IMG/VR virus record: IMGVR_UViG_3300048997_000353
Coordinates: 44,442-108,441 of that record
Source: a virus
Strand: one strand, 5' to 3'
Length of the DNA stretch: 64,000 bases
The position numbers and the translations under genes are program-made. Numbering within the stretch: position 1 is the first letter of the stretch; every line of letters starts with the position of its first letter. The notes below the pieces were generated by a model. The model was given only the letters and a program-made list of their open reading frames with translations. It had not been told where the DNA came from and searched no databases. Of the stretch, positions 6,674 to 39,913 are shown piece after piece.

Positions 6674-7348
6674 TTAGACGCCGAGGGCGTCTGCGAATTC
6701 CGGGGGAACTTTGCTCGAATCGATCGGAGCACCGCCGGGACGCGGAACCATCGTGGGACCCTTGGGCCCATCGGGCAACGCGCCGTGAACGGACGTGGGA
6801 ACCAGTTTGTCGCCAAGCTGCTCGGCAACCTGGGCCATGACCGCTTTTTTGAACATCTCCTTGAATTCGGGAGAGTCCTTGATTTCCTTGACGGCCGATG
6901 TGAGTGCTTCTCCCATGAGACCGCCCACCGTCGCCTTCACGTCGGCACTCTCCAGGAGTTTTGCCGCATTCGATTCAGCCGGAGCTGCTGCTGGATCGGC
7001 CGTTGCGCCTGCGCCGGCAGCCGCTGCCTTTGCAGCCTTGCCGTCACCGTCCATCGCGGTCTGGCAAGCGCCCATGTGTTCGCTGTGTGCCTTGTGAAGA
7101 GTGGCTGCCTCTTCGTGATGTGCTGCCAACGCTTTGTGCATCTCGTGGGCGGCGCCGAAGTAAGCCTTATCCACATGATCGTTTTCCAACGCCTCGTGCT
7201 TGGCCTTGGCCAGAGCCGCGTGATCGGTGTGGGCCTTCGCCATGGCTGTGTTGCACTTGTGCAACGCCATGTGATGTTCGGCGGATTTGCCGAAGTGCGT
7301 TCCCATCCCGCCCATCGCTTTCACGATGGCTTCAACTGTCTTGTCCAT
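6674..7348 (-). CDS. Helical scaffold-like head assembly protein
   Basis: 224 residues starting MDKTVEAIVKAMGGMG, behind a strong SD (AGGAGGAACGGC). The first 110 residues are almost pure alpha helix rich in Ala, His and Lys (AKAHTDHAALAKAKHEALE); an Ala/Pro linker follows, then a second helical part and a Pro-Gly tail. Position between protease and capsid gene fits a scaffold or capsid-assembly factor, though no family motif is visible. Confidence 0.6.
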   Translation of the reverse strand: MDKTVEAIVKAMGGMGTHFGKSAEHHMALHKCNTAMAKAHTDHAALAKAKHEALENDHVDKAYFGAAHEMHKALAAHHEEAATLHKAHSEHMGACQTAMDGDGKAAKAAAAGAGATADPAAAPAESNAAKLLESADVKATVGGLMGEALTSAVKEIKDSPEFKEMFKKAVMAQVAEQLGDKLVPTSVHGALPDGPKGPTMVPRPGGAPIDSSKVPPEFADALGV

Positions 7349-7402: not shown

Positions 7403-8893
7403 TTAGGCCGTGACGTGAATCCGTTCCTTGATATCTTCCTTGAGCTCCTGACTTTCCTCCTGGACCATTTCGACCAGGATGTCGACCAGGTCATTCACGT
7501 TTTCCTGTAGATGCGCTGGCAGCGGGGAATCGGTGTCCTCTTCCCATTCCTGTTCGGACACGACGCTGAACAGGATATAACTCAGGCCTTGCACATATTC
7601 CGCCAGGCGGGAGACTTCGTACATTCCCTTGGCCAGTTTTCCCAGATCGGAATCGAGAAATGAAAGTGTGTGGCCGACGTCGCCTTTTTTTCGCGACAGC
7701 TTGTTGACGCTGATCCGCGCCTGCTTCCGCAGGTAGGAGTGGATGGAGGCTAGTTTTGCCTTATCCAAGGCCACATCGATTCCCTGTTGCTTCGCGGCGG
7801 CGACGACCCGCGCATACGTTTTATCTTTTTCGCCTGCCGGAATGGCCTTGGTTTGATTGAAGCGCGCCAGGGCTTTGCGGACATGCGATTTGGTTTTGCT
7901 GTCGCTCGAAAATTTAATGGGCAATTCCCAGGTCGCCGGATCGTTCTTGTTGCCGACGTAGGCGAACGCCGAGGAAGCGAGATCTTCGCTGGCCACCCGT
8001 TTCGTTTTCACCTTGGCGATATTGGGATCGGCGGCTTTCAGCAGGGCAACTTCCCTCTCGACTGCGGCGCGGACGAGTTTTTCAATCCGGCCCTCGTCTC
8101 TGAATGTTGGTTCCACTTTGGAGAACTTGCGCAATTCCAGAGCGCCATCGGATTTCACGTAGGCAAAGTGGGCTGAGGCCAAACAGGGATTATCGACGAG
8201 CGAACATTCGCTGGGATTGGCGACGTACCGCATGCAGTTCTTATAAACCGGATCTGGGACCATCTCGCCCACCTTGCGGCCGCCCTGCGAAAATCCGGTG
8301 TACACATTCTTCTGCACTTTTTTCCAGGCATCGTCGTCGACCACTTCGAAACCCATAAAAATTTCGCGGTCATTATCGCGGAAATCGAATCCGATGCCCT
8401 TGCCCACAGCGTCGAGCTGGTGCATGGCACGAAGAGGAAAACAATTATCGCCGCCCGCCGGGTTGGCTTGGCTCGCTTTCTTCATTTCGGCAATGACAGC
8501 TTCGTAGTAGGGCTTGGAGCCAGCATAATCGCAGACTTCATCGTCTTTGTCCGGGACCTCGGCCGTGACGATGCCCCATACCTGTCGCTTGGCCTCGTCG
8601 ATTTTGACGAAGGGAATGAATTTTCGAAATTCACTTGGCATCGCTTTCTCCTTTTTTGCTGGCTCGTACTCGTTGCAGCAATCGCCGGCCGCCACGGGAA
8701 TCAGACCTGTATCATCAACGAAAACTTGCAAGTCTGGATCAGTAATCACATCAAGGTTTGAACAATGTGCCTTCTCCATAAACCTGCAATGACTACACCG
8801 GAACGGTCCATTCTTGGCTCGGGCAAACCCGGTTGCGGCAGTTCCAATCGCCTTCTGCAACTGTTCCACCTCATCACACACACAAAAGCCCAC
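7403..8893 (-). CDS. Prohead protease / XkdF-like protein with DUF6582 and N-terminal zinc domain
   Basis: The frame encodes 496 residues. Residues about 25-80 hold a Cys cluster (CSHCRFMEKAHC, then CC). From an internal ATG at 8641 with an excellent SD (AAAAAAGGAGAAAGCG) comes the protease-like part: MPSEFRKFIPF, with CSLVDNPCLASAHF matching the SLVDxPA motif of prohead proteases. A DUF6582-like stretch follows (AFAYVGN, WELPIKF, ALARFNQTKAIP). The first start, GTG 8893, lies in the portal terminator, so the short 412-residue product from 8641 may dominate. Confidence 0.75.
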   Translation of the reverse strand: MGFCVCDEVEQLQKAIGTAATGFARAKNGPFRCSHCRFMEKAHCSNLDVITDPDLQVFVDDTGLIPVAAGDCCNEYEPAKKEKAMPSEFRKFIPFVKIDEAKRQVWGIVTAEVPDKDDEVCDYAGSKPYYEAVIAEMKKASQANPAGGDNCFPLRAMHQLDAVGKGIGFDFRDNDREIFMGFEVVDDDAWKKVQKNVYTGFSQGGRKVGEMVPDPVYKNCMRYVANPSECSLVDNPCLASAHFAYVKSDGALELRKFSKVEPTFRDEGRIEKLVRAAVEREVALLKAADPNIAKVKTKRVASEDLASSAFAYVGNKNDPATWELPIKFSSDSKTKSHVRKALARFNQTKAIPAGEKDKTYARVVAAAKQQGIDVALDKAKLASIHSYLRKQARISVNKLSRKKGDVGHTLSFLDSDLGKLAKGMYEVSRLAEYVQGLSYILFSVVSEQEWEEDTDSPLPAHLQENVNDLVDILVEMVQEESQELKEDIKERIHVTA

Positions 8894-12359: not shown

Positions 12360-12434
12360 TGGAGCGCCTGGCGCGATTCGAACGCGCGACCCGCCTCTTT
12401 AGAGAAGGCTACTCTACCGCTGAGTTACAGGCGC
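12360..12434 (-). tRNA. tRNA with anticodon CUA (amber suppressor type)
   Basis: A full cloverleaf can be drawn: 7-bp acceptor (GCGCCTG/CAGGCGC), D arm (ACTC/GAGT), anticodon stem GCCTT/GAGGC with 7-base loop CTCTAAA, 5-base variable loop, T arm GCGCG-TTCGAAT-CGCGC, discriminator U and encoded CCA. Loop positions 34-36 are CTA, which reads UAG. U33 and A37 are normal. U73 is a Gly or Cys-type discriminator, so the charging amino acid is uncertain. Confidence 0.9.
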
Positions 12435-12467: not shown

Positions 12468-12920
12468 TTATTCCAACGATTCGACCAAGCTGGTGCCCGG
12501 TCCGCACTCAAGCGCAGTGAGCTGCCGCCCACTACCGGGCAGAGAATTGGTGCGGACGGTAGGATTTTCACCCACACTTTCAGCTTTAGAGGCCGACGTG
12601 CCTGACACCGCGTCCGCAGTGTATTTCCAAAGTCGGTAGTTCTTCAGCGCCGCGCGCTGTTCCCCCGTGATCGGAGCCGTGGCAATCGCCGTAAATCCAA
12701 AGTTATTATCCGGTTCGGTCCAGAGGTAGTGCGGGATGTAGTTGGCTTGCAGCTTCGCCACGACGCGGCGCAAAGCGGCCACACCGGGCAGGCCGACGAC
12801 GATGATATTGGGAACGAGATCTTCGTTGGGGTGCTGGATGGCGGCGAGATGGAAAACTGCATGATTGGCTTGAACGATTTGGTGAGCGACAGGAATGTCC
12901 TGTCTAACGAAAACGTACAC
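12468..12920 (-). CDS. Peptidyl-tRNA hydrolase 2 (PTH2)-like protein
   Basis: 150 residues. The N-terminus YVFVRQDIP...QIVQANHAVFHLA matches the PTH2 fold start (V-R-x-D-L and Q-xx-HA), followed by a strand-helix unit (NIIVVGLPGVAALRRVVAKL) and LWTEPDNNFGFTAIATAPI. PTH2 enzymes recycle peptidyl-tRNAs, so a gene next to a phage tRNA is suggestive. The last 45 residues are low complexity. Start is a GTG at 12920 without a strong SD, 28-35 bases below a good promoter. Confidence 0.65.
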   Translation of the reverse strand: MYVFVRQDIPVAHQIVQANHAVFHLAAIQHPNEDLVPNIIVVGLPGVAALRRVVAKLQANYIPHYLWTEPDNNFGFTAIATAPITGEQRAALKNYRLWKYTADAVSGTSASKAESVGENPTVRTNSLPGSGRQLTALECGPGTSLVESLE

Positions 12921-13436: not shown

Positions 13437-13799
13437 TCAGTGGAAAAGTTTTGCGGAAAGTTTAAGTGGCGGGAATAATTTTGGCGAGCGCAGTAGTTCG
13501 ATGATTGGCTTGTCTGCCTCTAGCACGTGCCATGTATCAGGCACGACTCCGTAATTCTTCCATGCCTTTTCCACCATGATGTTCAAATCCCTGATCGTGA
13601 TCGTGGCTACTTCAATCGGACTCTTTCCCCACTTCCCACCGGCAAAAGTATAAACACCTCCGGAATCCACCGAATAATTCCCAGGTTTTATTTCGCTCGG
13701 AAAACTGAAGATCCGAAACGGCCAGGAGCGCGCAGCGGCCGTAGCTGCCACGCCGCCTACGATCATGCCCAAGAATCCGCGTCTTGAAAGATTACTCAT
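13437..13799 (-). CDS. Tat-signal-like phage protein
   Basis: 120 residues starting MSNLSRRGFLGMIVGG: a twin-arginine motif (SRRGFLG) then a hydrophobic Ala/Gly stretch, a canonical Tat signal layout. The mature part contains GNYSVDSGGVYTF and a helical segment (TIRDLNIMVEKAWKNYG) then VPDTWHVL. It may be exported folded, or the RR segment may be coincidental in a virion protein. SD GGAGAAACTCT supports the start. A second RR-start protein occurs at 20392-20571. Confidence 0.6.
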   Translation of the reverse strand: MSNLSRRGFLGMIVGGVAATAAARSWPFRIFSFPSEIKPGNYSVDSGGVYTFAGGKWGKSPIEVATITIRDLNIMVEKAWKNYGVVPDTWHVLEADKPIIELLRSPKLFPPLKLSAKLFH

Positions 13800-13992
13800 A
13801 GAGTTTCTCCACGCGCCGCAAGCAGGCGACGATTTCAGGTTCAACTTGTTGCAGCTTGAGTGTGCCCATCACCACGCGTTCGATATGACGGTTGGCGACG
13901 CCCAGCTCCGTCCAACATCGCGCGCCATCGCCTCGCGTTTCGGCGCGCAACTGGATTGTGTTCCGTCGTTGAATGTAATCTTCAAGAATCAT
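13792..13992 (-). CDS. Small charged hypothetical protein
   Basis: 66 residues starting MILEDYIQRRNTIQL, helical and rich in Arg and Glu; its stop overlaps the Tat-like gene start. No SD is obvious. It lies just below the hammerhead ribozyme, so its mRNA 5' end may be made by ribozyme cleavage. Confidence 0.45.
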   Translation of the reverse strand: MILEDYIQRRNTIQLRAETRGDGARCWTELGVANRHIERVVMGTLKLQQVEPEIVACLRRVEKLYE

Positions 13993-14026
13993 GAATTTTA
14001 ATGGGACGGTTGGTCACCAGTTATTC

Positions 14027-14105
14027 CCCGGCAGGGGTGACTCCACGGTACGCCTTCACAAGCAGCGTTTCGTCTCACGACTCTTCAGCCGCTAATAACG
14101 CCGGG
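14027..14105 (-). ncRNA. Hammerhead ribozyme (type I layout)
   Basis: The minus strand carries every core element. Box 1 is CTGAAGA; stem II is GTC-GTGA-GAC; box 2 is GAAA; stem III is ACGC...GCGT; the cleavage triplet is GUA, with the scissile bond between 14049 and 14048. Stem I pairs GCGG with CCGT next to the core and extends with CCCGGC/GCCGGG after internal loops, leaving stem I open. An outer 8-bp helix (GGGACGGT 14003-14010 with ACCGTCCC 14121-14128) may enclose it. It lies 40 bases downstream of tRNA-Ala. Confidence 0.75.
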
Positions 14106-14168
14106 CCAGATGTCAGCAAGACCGTCCCGTCGCTGACCCACGGATCGTACTGCAACATGCCTTAAATT

Positions 14169-14244
14169 TGGTGGACCTGACCGGCTATGATCCGGCTGCC
14201 TCCTGATTGCAAAACAGGCGCTCTCCCAATTGAGCTACAGGCCC
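14169..14244 (-). tRNA. tRNA-Ala (UGC) with atypical T loop
   Basis: Cloverleaf with acceptor GGGCCTG/CAGGTCC containing the G3:U70 wobble that defines alanine tRNAs, D arm GCTC/GAGC, anticodon loop TTTGCAA (UGC), A73 and encoded CCA. The T stem GCCGG/CCGGT closes a loop ATCATAG in place of the usual TTCRANY, and pair 31-39 is T-T. It may be decaying or specialised. Confidence 0.8.
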
Positions 14245-14254
14245 ACAAGAAATT

Positions 14255-14560
14255 CTACGCTACTTCCGGCAAATAGATGATCCATTGGTGGCCCTGACTG
14301 CACCGCGCCGTTTTGTTTCCGAGATCGACGGTGGTCGCGAGATCAAGTGCGTGGCAAGTTGGGCAAACAATTTGCTCGGCTGGAATATCCTTGCCGGCCA
14401 CGGTCACATATTGAATTTCCCGGTCCATCGCTTCCTCCACTTTCTCGACTTCTTCCGGATCACACAGAAATGCTGAGTCTCCAATGTAAATAATTTCACG
14501 GTCGGCATCAGCGGCGTCGAACGTGAAAACTCCGTAGCGATCTGCCACGACGATTTTCAT
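14255..14560 (-). CDS. Zinc-ribbon protein
   Basis: 101 residues starting MKIVVADRYGVFTF, ATGA-overlapping the upstream gene. The C-terminal 40 residues hold CPTCHALDL and CSQGHQW, a CxxC...CxxxH zinc site. The N-terminal part has an acidic helix (EEVEKVEEAMDRE). One of many small zinc proteins here; nucleic-acid binding is a guess. Confidence 0.6.
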   Translation of the reverse strand: MKIVVADRYGVFTFDAADADREIIYIGDSAFLCDPEEVEKVEEAMDREIQYVTVAGKDIPAEQIVCPTCHALDLATTVDLGNKTARCSQGHQWIIYLPEVA

Positions 14561-38868: not shown

Positions 38869-39511
38869 CAATTTCAGCCATTTGGCCGTACATAGTTAAG
38901 CAACGAAACAAAGGCGAAGGCTTGGCTAGACAGTGCTCCAAAACATGCTTGGCAGGAAAATAAGACTTGCTCCGTAACATGGCCTGTAGGATAATTACGT
39001 TAATGATATGCGTTAACTATATGAGAGAAAACATATAGGGACTTAAGCCGGACGCCAGCAGGGACCGGAACAGGGGTTCAACGCATTAGATTCCAGAGCA
39101 AAGTTAGGATGTGGCCTTGAGCCGATGATTCCTACTAACTTCCGCGATGTGGCCCCGCGCCGAATTCGGGATGGTCCTCTGGAGTTGATTAGGTTCCTAC
39201 AGAATAGCTCTATGGTTTGTTGTCCTATCGCTGACCATAGTGAAGGAAAGCCAATTCCTCTACCTGTACACAATCCACGGACGAAAGAAGATGCCTAAGT
39301 CAGATGAAGCGCAATCGGATAGCGCGGAATTATCCGTCCGACGCGTAGAACGGTAAGTCTACGCCACAACAGATTTTGCAGATGGACTCCGGTCAGGACC
39401 GCCGAGAAAGCGGAACCCGCAGGCTACACGCTAGGCAAACCGGAGTTAATGCACACGGTCCGTCCAAAGTCGGACCAAATTTTGGTGGTGGACGCCAAGG
39501 AGAATCAGACC
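38869..39511 (+). other. 640-base non-coding, hairpin-rich region before HNH gene
   Basis: No convincing reading frame. Hairpins seen: CTATGGT/ACCATAG (39210-39240), GCGTAGA/TCTACGC (39343-39364), CTCCGGT/ACCGGAG (39387-39445, enclosing CCGC/GCGG) and GGTCCG/CGGACC (39457-39476). The sequence GGTTCAACGCATTAGA near 39075 faintly recalls a group I intron R element, but I could not complete a P3-P7 core. Together with the HNH gene that follows it may be a mobile intron or intein-like remnant, or a long leader RNA. Confidence 0.4.
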
Positions 39512-39913
39512 ATGCAATCGCGACACGTCAAGGATCAAGGTATGAACTGGATTCGCAAGGAAAAGCGCCTGGCTATTTATCTGCGTGACGGTCTGGCCTG
39601 CGTGTATTGCGGCCAGAGTGTTGAGGATGGCGTGCAATTAACGCTCGATCATCTGATCTGCTACAAGCACCGCGGCACCAATCACGAATCCAATCTCGTG
39701 ACGGCTTGCCTTCAGTGCAATTCCTCGCGCGGTGCACGGCCCTGGAAACTGTTTGCCAAGAAAGTGGCCGGATACATCAACCACGGCGTCACAGCCAAGC
39801 AAATCGTTAGCTTCATTAGCAAAACGATTGCGCGGCCGCTGGACGTGAAAGCGGCCCAGAAACTAATTGCAAGGCGCGGGGGATTCGTCAAGGCTGTGTA
39901 CGGCAAGCGGTAG
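39512..39913 (+). CDS. HNH endonuclease
   Basis: 133 residues with SD AAGGAGAATCAGACC. The HNH core is CVYCGQSVEDG ... LTLDHLICYKHRGTNHESNLV TACLQCNSSRGARP: CxxC, DH, N, CxxCN. A helical C-terminus (AAQKLIARRGGFVKAVYG) may bind DNA. It is a free-standing HNH gene after a structured non-coding stretch, a typical homing-endonuclease setting. Stop is UAG. Confidence 0.8.
   Translation: MQSRHVKDQGMNWIRKEKRLAIYLRDGLACVYCGQSVEDGVQLTLDHLICYKHRGTNHESNLVTACLQCNSSRGARPWKLFAKKVAGYINHGVTAKQIVSFISKTIARPLDVKAAQKLIARRGGFVKAVYGKR

What the first reader, a model, noticed from the sequence alone, without database searches (positions are those of the whole stretch)
14003..14128. Hammerhead ribozyme between a tRNA and a small gene
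All core positions of a hammerhead are present on the minus strand: CTGAAGA, GTC-GTGA-GAC, GAAA, stem III with the A15.1-U16.1 pair, and a GUA cleavage triplet, enclosed by an 8-bp outer helix. It sits 40 bases below tRNA-Ala. Cleavage after 14049 would separate the tRNA transcript from the mRNA of the small gene at 13792-13992.
Basis: partly seen in the sequence, partly recalled or inferred. Interest (0 to 1): 0.8.

Follow-up and report, generated by a model that had tools for sequence, protein, structure and literature searches.

The report
Hammerhead ribozyme inside knotted phage RNA
A predicted self-cutting RNA (hammerhead ribozyme) in this phage is real, but it is only the middle of a larger, knotted RNA that recurs, once per genome and often beside tRNA genes, in very different phages and that no entry in the RNA-family database Rfam 15 describes.

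Summary
The element spans 14143-14003 (minus strand).

Rfam's best hammerhead score is sub-threshold (17.4 bits, cutoff 34). But I found the same RNA in 15 further distinct sequences in the same order, in a permuted order (E. coli prophages, Enterobacter and Pectobacterium phages, Acinetobacter plasmids), and without the hammerhead in two tRNA-cluster phages. Covariation is overwhelming (21 of 36 pairs change on both sides; 0/500 shuffles match). A model built without this sequence finds it at 108 bits, E=2.7e-30. One copy per matching record; at least 9 of about 21 independent loci lie beside tRNAs; no Rfam family matches the domain.

Best reading: a self-cleaving phage RNA that nicks itself between A14049 and C14048 while helices B-D hold both halves, protecting the new ends at a tRNA/mRNA boundary. 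Structure is shown; cleavage, retention and purpose are inferred.

The parts
14003..14143 (-). whole element: knotted RNA with embedded hammerhead
   Evidence: leave-one-out covariance model hit 14143-14002, 108.3 bits, E=2.7e-30; alignment A1
14138..14143 (-). conserved 5' CCGUGG of half 1
   Evidence: near-invariant in alignment A1
14132..14137 (-). helix A, 5' strand GUCAGC (pairs with 14117-14112)
   Evidence: 4 of 6 pairs change on both sides, 96.9% of cells paired
14112..14117 (-). helix A, 3' strand GCUGAC
   Evidence: 6-10 bp in all 23 members with 20 different 5' sequences
14003..14010 (-). helix B, 3' strand ACCGUCCC
14106..14111 (-). conserved AUCUGG between helices A and C
14100..14105 (-). 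helix C, 5' strand CCCGGC, encloses the hammerhead
   Evidence: 100% of cells paired; CCCAGC/GCUGGG, CCCGAC/GUCGGG, CCCUGC/GCAGGG and CCCGCC/GGCGGG elsewhere
14027..14032 (-). helix C, 3' strand GCCGGG, in the loop of hairpin D
14089..14092 (-). hammerhead stem I, 5' strand GCGG
   Evidence: 98.4% of cells paired, 2 pairs change on both sides
14082..14088 (-). hammerhead core CUGAAGA (C3-A9)
   Evidence: CUGANGA in all members of A1 except Gaia UUGAUAA
14072..14081 (-). hammerhead stem II GUC-GUGA-GAC
   Evidence: covariation
14068..14071 (-). hammerhead core GAAA (G12-A15.1)
   Evidence: invariant in A1
14050..14068 (-). hammerhead stem III hairpin with A15.1-U16.1
   Evidence: 100% of cells paired, 2 pairs change on both sides
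14048..14049 (-). predicted cleavage site, between A17 (14049) and C1.1 (14048)
   Evidence: position inferred from hammerhead rules on the sequence; not tested
14045..14048 (-). hammerhead stem I, 3' strand CCGU (overlaps conserved CGYGGAGU of half 2)
14036..14041 (-). helix D, 5' strand GUCACC (pseudoknotted across helix C)
   Evidence: 5 of 6 pairs change on both sides, 99% of cells paired; paired in all 23 members
14013..14018 (-). helix D, 3' strand GGUGAC
14019..14026 (-). conserved GAAUAACU between C3' and D3'
   Evidence: GGGGAAUAAC invariant in A1
14169..14244 (-). tRNA-Ala(UGC), 25 nt upstream of the element
   Evidence: ARAGORN, Rfam
13792..13992 (-). 66-aa ORF downstream; one homologue found (L017, 66% identity)
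   Evidence: no PHROG match

Best explanation
The element is a self-cleaving phage RNA of about 141 nt. Two similar half-domains (CCGUGG-hairpin-AUCUGG-tail, and CGYGGAGU-hairpin-CUAGG-tail) lock together because the loop of each hairpin pairs with the tail of the other (helices B and C). A hammerhead ribozyme sits between them, its stem I growing out of helix C. In this phage the RNA would form at the 3' side of tRNA-Ala, cut itself between 14049 and 14048, and leave a 2',3'-cyclic phosphate on the tRNA-side strand and a 5'-OH on the small-gene strand. Helices B, C and D would keep the two strands together, so the product is a nicked but intact knot. I propose it shields both new ends from exonucleases and 5'-end-dependent decay and so punctuates and stabilises tRNA or late-gene transcripts. 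Shown: sequence, secondary structure, conservation, tRNA proximity. Inferred from hammerhead knowledge: cleavage and its site. Inferred without direct evidence: retention of the halves and end protection. That the conserved hammerhead-bearing RNA is real I hold at about 0.97, that this copy cleaves at about 0.85; the confidence given is for the whole mechanism.
For: Core, stems and NUH triplet present. Same architecture in 15 other distinct sequences in the same order. 21 of 36 pairs change on both sides, covariation score 0.490 vs 0.136 in shuffles (0/500), 90.6% of cells paired vs 32-45% when slid. Helix B present in all 23 members with 20 different 5' strands; C and D pair in 23/23 (three permuted members were misparsed for helix A there). 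Model built without the window finds it at 108.3 bits. Permuted members keep the same helices. Core pair 3-8 covaries in Gaia, a covariation reported active (PMC3088659). The element abuts or neighbours tRNAs in the window, Gaia, phiGD24-3, Pappous, an Acinetobacter plasmid, L027 and L042, and lies inside tRNA clusters in L041 and Microcystis phage Mwe-JY26. One copy per matching record.
Against: No cleavage data exist. The inspected Acinetobacter plasmid copy has AAAA for GAAA (G12A), so cleavage may be dispensable there. Two members lack the hammerhead. About half of the loci have no tRNA called nearby. Retention of the halves and end protection rest only on the helices; the roughly 25 conserved unpaired bases suggest a further binding function that this model does not explain.
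Confidence: 0.6

Rival explanations
1. One reading: a plain hammerhead that severs the tRNA precursor from the downstream mRNA, trimming the tRNA 3' trailer, as proposed for HDV-like theta ribozymes of gut phages.
For: Cut site lies between tRNA-Ala and the small gene; several members abut tRNA 3' ends. Theta ribozymes are tRNA-associated and postulated to process 3' trailers (PMC10879173).
Against: Three conserved helices bridge the products. The tRNA would keep a folded 3' trailer of about 120 nt. Many loci have no tRNA called nearby, and the permuted form puts the whole knot before tRNA-Met in Pappous.
Confidence: 0.15
2. The knotted domain is a sensor (natural allosteric ribozyme): a ligand or protein binds the conserved unpaired bases and switches hammerhead cleavage on or off.
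For: Roughly 25 conserved unpaired bases (AUCUGG, GGAGU, GGGGAAUAAC, CCGUGG). Loop II is not conserved, so the usual stem I-loop II stabilisation may be replaced by the domain.
Against: Hammerhead-less members keep the domain, so sensing for cleavage cannot be its only role; no ligand is suggested by context.
Confidence: 0.12
3. The domain is the functional part, for example a small phage RNA that acts as decoy or inhibitor from tRNA arrays, and the hammerhead is an optional maturation insert or a decaying passenger.
For: Hammerhead-less forms in a 20-tRNA plus tmRNA cluster (L041) and in a Microcystis phage tRNA cluster; core mutation G12A in an Acinetobacter plasmid.
Against: The catalytic core is intact in nearly all members and covaries at pair 3-8, so cleavage appears to be under selection in most.
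Confidence: 0.1
4. A mobile, circular-RNA-derived element, comparable to retrozymes, which would explain the circularly permuted copies.
For: Two circular permutations of the same RNA exist.
Against: Exactly one copy per matching record, no scattering in host genomes (0/369, 0/385, 1/296).
Confidence: 0.02
5. Chance resemblance to a hammerhead.
For: Rfam score below cutoff; minimum-energy fold of the lone sequence differs.
Against: Leave-one-out model hit E=2.7e-30, covariation, chance expectation.
Confidence: 0.01

Closest known systems
Hammerhead ribozyme type I (Rfam RF00163)
   Same: Core CUGANGA/GAAA, three stems, A15.1-U16.1, NUH site, stem I open-ended, stems II and III closed hairpins.
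   Different: 17.4 bits against a cutoff of 34; stem I is 4 bp and continues into a conserved doubly pseudoknotted domain that the 45-position family model does not contain.
Bacterial and prophage hammerheads of Perreault et al. 2011 (PMC3088659)
   Same: Found in phage and prophage intergenic regions, single or clustered; pseudoknots are common; U3-A8 variants known.
   Different: Their pseudoknot links the loop of stem I to nucleotides beside stem II and stabilises the core; here the pseudoknots join two half-domains beyond stem I and do not involve stem II. I found no description of this domain there; the supplements were not available.
Theta ribozymes (HDV-like, PMC10879173)
   Same: Self-cleaving phage RNAs next to tRNA genes.
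   Different: HDV fold, not hammerhead; the word hammerhead does not occur in that paper's main text.
Twister-P5 ribozyme (RF02684)
   Same: A second predicted self-cleaving RNA in this same phage, window 39377-39474.
   Different: Unrelated fold and position.

Membership tests
Hammerhead ribozyme | conserved core C3U4G5A6N7G8A9 ... G12A13A14 | tested here: met
   14088-14082 and 14071-14069; conserved in family
Hammerhead ribozyme | three stems around the core, with A15.1-U16.1 | tested here: met
   covariation in I, II and III
Hammerhead ribozyme | NUH cleavage triplet | tested here: met
   GUA in window; GUA or GUC in the relatives
Hammerhead ribozyme | Rfam gathering score for RF00163 or RF00008 | tested here: not met
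   17.4 bits vs 34 for RF00163; 16.1 vs 48.5 for RF00008. A database threshold, not a biochemical definition
Hammerhead ribozyme | stem I to loop II tertiary contact or pseudoknot | tested here: inconclusive
   loop II sequence varies across the family; no loop II pairing seen
Hammerhead ribozyme | self-cleavage giving 5'-OH and 2',3'-cyclic phosphate | not testable with these tools
   needs in vitro assay
Theta (HDV-like) ribozyme | HDV-type nested double pseudoknot with HDV core | tested here: not met
   no HDV-family match in Rfam at E<=10 over 13900-14300
Any Rfam 15 RNA family for the knotted domain | match to a covariance model | tested here: not met
   no family but Hammerhead_1 (sub-threshold) overlaps the element in the window at E<=10; none at gathering score in 19 further element-bearing loci

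The most novel reading that the evidence does not exclude
A previously undescribed class of phage RNA: two similar half-domains exchange loop-tail pairings to make a pseudo-two-fold knot, existing in two circular permutations and with or without an embedded hammerhead that nicks the RNA while the knot holds it together. Its job in phage tRNA and late-gene transcripts is unknown, and the hammerhead serves it as a maturation or switching module.
Probability: 0.6. Interest if true: 0.85.

Novelty: new variant of a known kind. Interest (0 to 1): 0.75.

Why it matters
What bacterial and phage hammerheads are for is an open question. This family ties one to a conserved partner domain and a recurring place (tRNAs, late genes), and it occurs in cultured laboratory phages (Gaia on M. 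smegmatis, Karkharias and Constance on Arthrobacter). Function can therefore be tested directly, with natural hammerhead-less and core-mutated members as controls. The domain is a new target for structure work, and an Rfam entry would let annotation pipelines find it, since Rfam's present models miss it.

Tried and rejected
Relatives by synteny: portal-gene relatives (L002-L016) and the 66-aa homologue contig (L017) lack the element; up- and downstream proteins found no relatives. An exact 22-mer of the core found nothing; a degenerate core with GUGA loop found L025, and that opened the family. A weak model hit in the portal relative L016 (14.3 bits) was read and rejected: no conserved half-domain sequence. 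Pattern-only hits in L047, L048 and L050-L060 are chance matches. Minimum-free-energy folding was rejected as evidence because it omits the pseudoknots; forced nested folds are 3.5-21.7 kcal/mol above the MFE before B and D are counted. Helix B columns in the MAFFT alignment are partly out of register (60.7% paired), so B was scored separately. Mobile-element reading rejected: one copy per matching record, near absence from host genomes. Literature text search for the conserved string gave nothing relevant. The VIPR preprint was checked; its hammerhead-interspersed arrays are a different context.

Full report
WHAT WAS CHECKED. Exact positions: stem I 14092-14089/14048-14045, CUGAAGA 14088-14082, stem II 14081-14079/14074-14072 with a GUGA loop, GAAA 14071-14068, stem III from 14068/14050 inward, triplet GUA 14051-14049, so the cut falls between 14049 and 14048. 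tRNA-Ala lies at 14244-14169 and the 66-aa ORF at 13992-13792. The record is a virus contig of 108,441 bases; the window holds a portal and a terminase large-subunit gene.

IS IT MORE THAN CHANCE? On its own the hit is suggestive only. Rfam scores Hammerhead_1 at 17.4 bits against a cutoff of 34. The minimum-energy fold of the lone 126-mer is a competing structure, with a z-score of -1.65. In 1.7 Gb of random sequence of the same dinucleotide make-up, a loose type I/II descriptor is expected 0.036 times per window, and a strict one fitted to this case was never met. A one-mismatch descriptor found nothing else in about 300 kb of relatives. Relatives with the same portal gene lack it.

THE HOMOLOGUES. 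A degenerate core pattern in 2.9 million viral contigs gave one hit, L025. It shares not only the hammerhead but long flanks: CAUCUGGCCCGGC before it and CGYGGAGU...CCCCUGCCGGGGAAUAACUGG after it. Patterns built on the flanks and BLAST against named phages, plasmids and E. coli then gave a family. After removing near-duplicates there are 16 sequences in the window's order (window, L025-L031, L033, Arthrobacter phage Karkharias, mycobacteriophages Gaia and phiGD24-3, L040, L042, L044, and a spirochaete contig L049). Five sequences are in a permuted order (Enterobacter phage SDFMU_EhYP, two E. coli prophages, Pectobacterium phage Pappous, an Acinetobacter plasmid). Two have no hammerhead (L041, Microcystis phage Mwe-JY26). 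The permuted form occurs in 15 of 5,426 E. coli genomes, in prophage regions in the two inspected.

THE STRUCTURE. Beyond the hammerhead there are four helices. A is a hairpin near the 5' end (14137-14132/14117-14112). C (14105-14100/14032-14027) encloses the hammerhead, and its 3' strand lies in the loop of hairpin D (14041-14036/14018-14013). The two halves are alike: CCGUGG-hairpin-AUCUGG-tail, then CGYGGAGU-hairpin-CUAGG-tail; the loop of each pairs with the tail of the other. On 16 sequences, 36 pairs, 90.6% of cells are paired, 21 pairs change on both sides, and the covariation score is 0.490 against 0.136 in shuffles (0/500 reach it) and at most 0.112 when slid. Helix B was out of register in part of that alignment and was scored apart: 6-10 bp in all 23 members, with 20 different 5' strands. 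The same script pairs C and D in 23/23; its helix A parse failed for the three members of the Enterobacter/E. coli permuted group. A model built from the other 15 sequences finds the window at 108.3 bits, E=2.7e-30, from 14143 to 14002. Shortened calibration makes that E-value rough.

THE CATALYTIC CORE. CUGANGA and GAAA are intact in nearly all members. Gaia has UUGAUAA, which is C3 to U together with G8 to A, the covariation of the 3-8 pair that Perreault et al. report as active (PMC3088659). The inspected Acinetobacter plasmid copy carries G12 to A and may be inactive. Loop II is variable, so the usual stem I-loop II contact is not evident.

CONTEXT. In Gaia and phiGD24-3 the element starts at the last base or the next base after an annotated tRNA-Ser. 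In Karkharias it directly follows a tRNA-like T arm that ARAGORN does not call. tRNAs lie within about 60 nt in the window, L027, L042, Pappous and the Acinetobacter plasmid, and L041 and the Microcystis phage carry it inside tRNA clusters. Others sit between late genes: capsid-region and tail genes in SDFMU_EhYP, the antiterminator and holin in E. coli EC6622. Each matching record has exactly one copy; sampled cell genomes almost never have it (0/369, 0/385 and 1/296, the one being L049).

MECHANISM. Shown: sequence, secondary structure by covariation, distribution. Inferred from hammerhead knowledge: self-cleavage at 14049/14048 leaving a cyclic phosphate and a 5'-OH. Inferred from anatomy only: helices B, C and D bridge the cut, so the halves stay together as a nicked knot that shields both new ends; I propose this stabilises or punctuates tRNA and late transcripts. 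The conserved unpaired bases may bind something, which leaves a sensor or a decoy role open.

NOVELTY AND LIMITS. No Rfam 15 family other than a sub-threshold Hammerhead_1 overlaps the element in the window (E<=10), and none matches it in 19 further loci at gathering score. Text searches found no description, but only open-licence papers were searchable and supplements were not. Hammerhead-less members are surely under-counted, because the scans required a spacing that the hammerhead fills.

Noticed in passing
window 39377-39474 (+): Type-P5 twister ribozyme above Rfam cutoff (39.5 vs 37.6 bits), overlapping the start of an ORF with an HNH-like motif at 39449-39913; a second predicted self-cleaving RNA in the same phage.
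   Followed up: partly
window 12360-12434 and 12551-12617 (-): Two tRNAs with CUA (amber suppressor) anticodons upstream of the portal gene; the related phage contig L007 has two such tRNAs in the same place (7265-7339, 7526-7625).
   Followed up: partly
L041 1-7515: Phage contig with 20 tRNA genes plus a tmRNA gene; it carries the element without hammerhead.
   Followed up: partly
L062 5740-5820 and 5990-6200: In E. coli EC6622 the flanks AACAGGTAAGAGCA...TGCTCTT occur twice between antiterminator and holin, around two different inserts, one of them the permuted element; looks like cassette swapping.
   Followed up: no
L065 1000-1075: Streptomyces phage phiSASD1 carries what looks like a decayed half 1 of the element directly after a tRNA-like T arm, before its putative holin gene.
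   Followed up: no
L039 1460-1660: An Acinetobacter plasmid carries the permuted element next to tRNA-Asn with GAAA mutated to AAAA, an apparently inactivated hammerhead inside an intact knot.
   Followed up: partly
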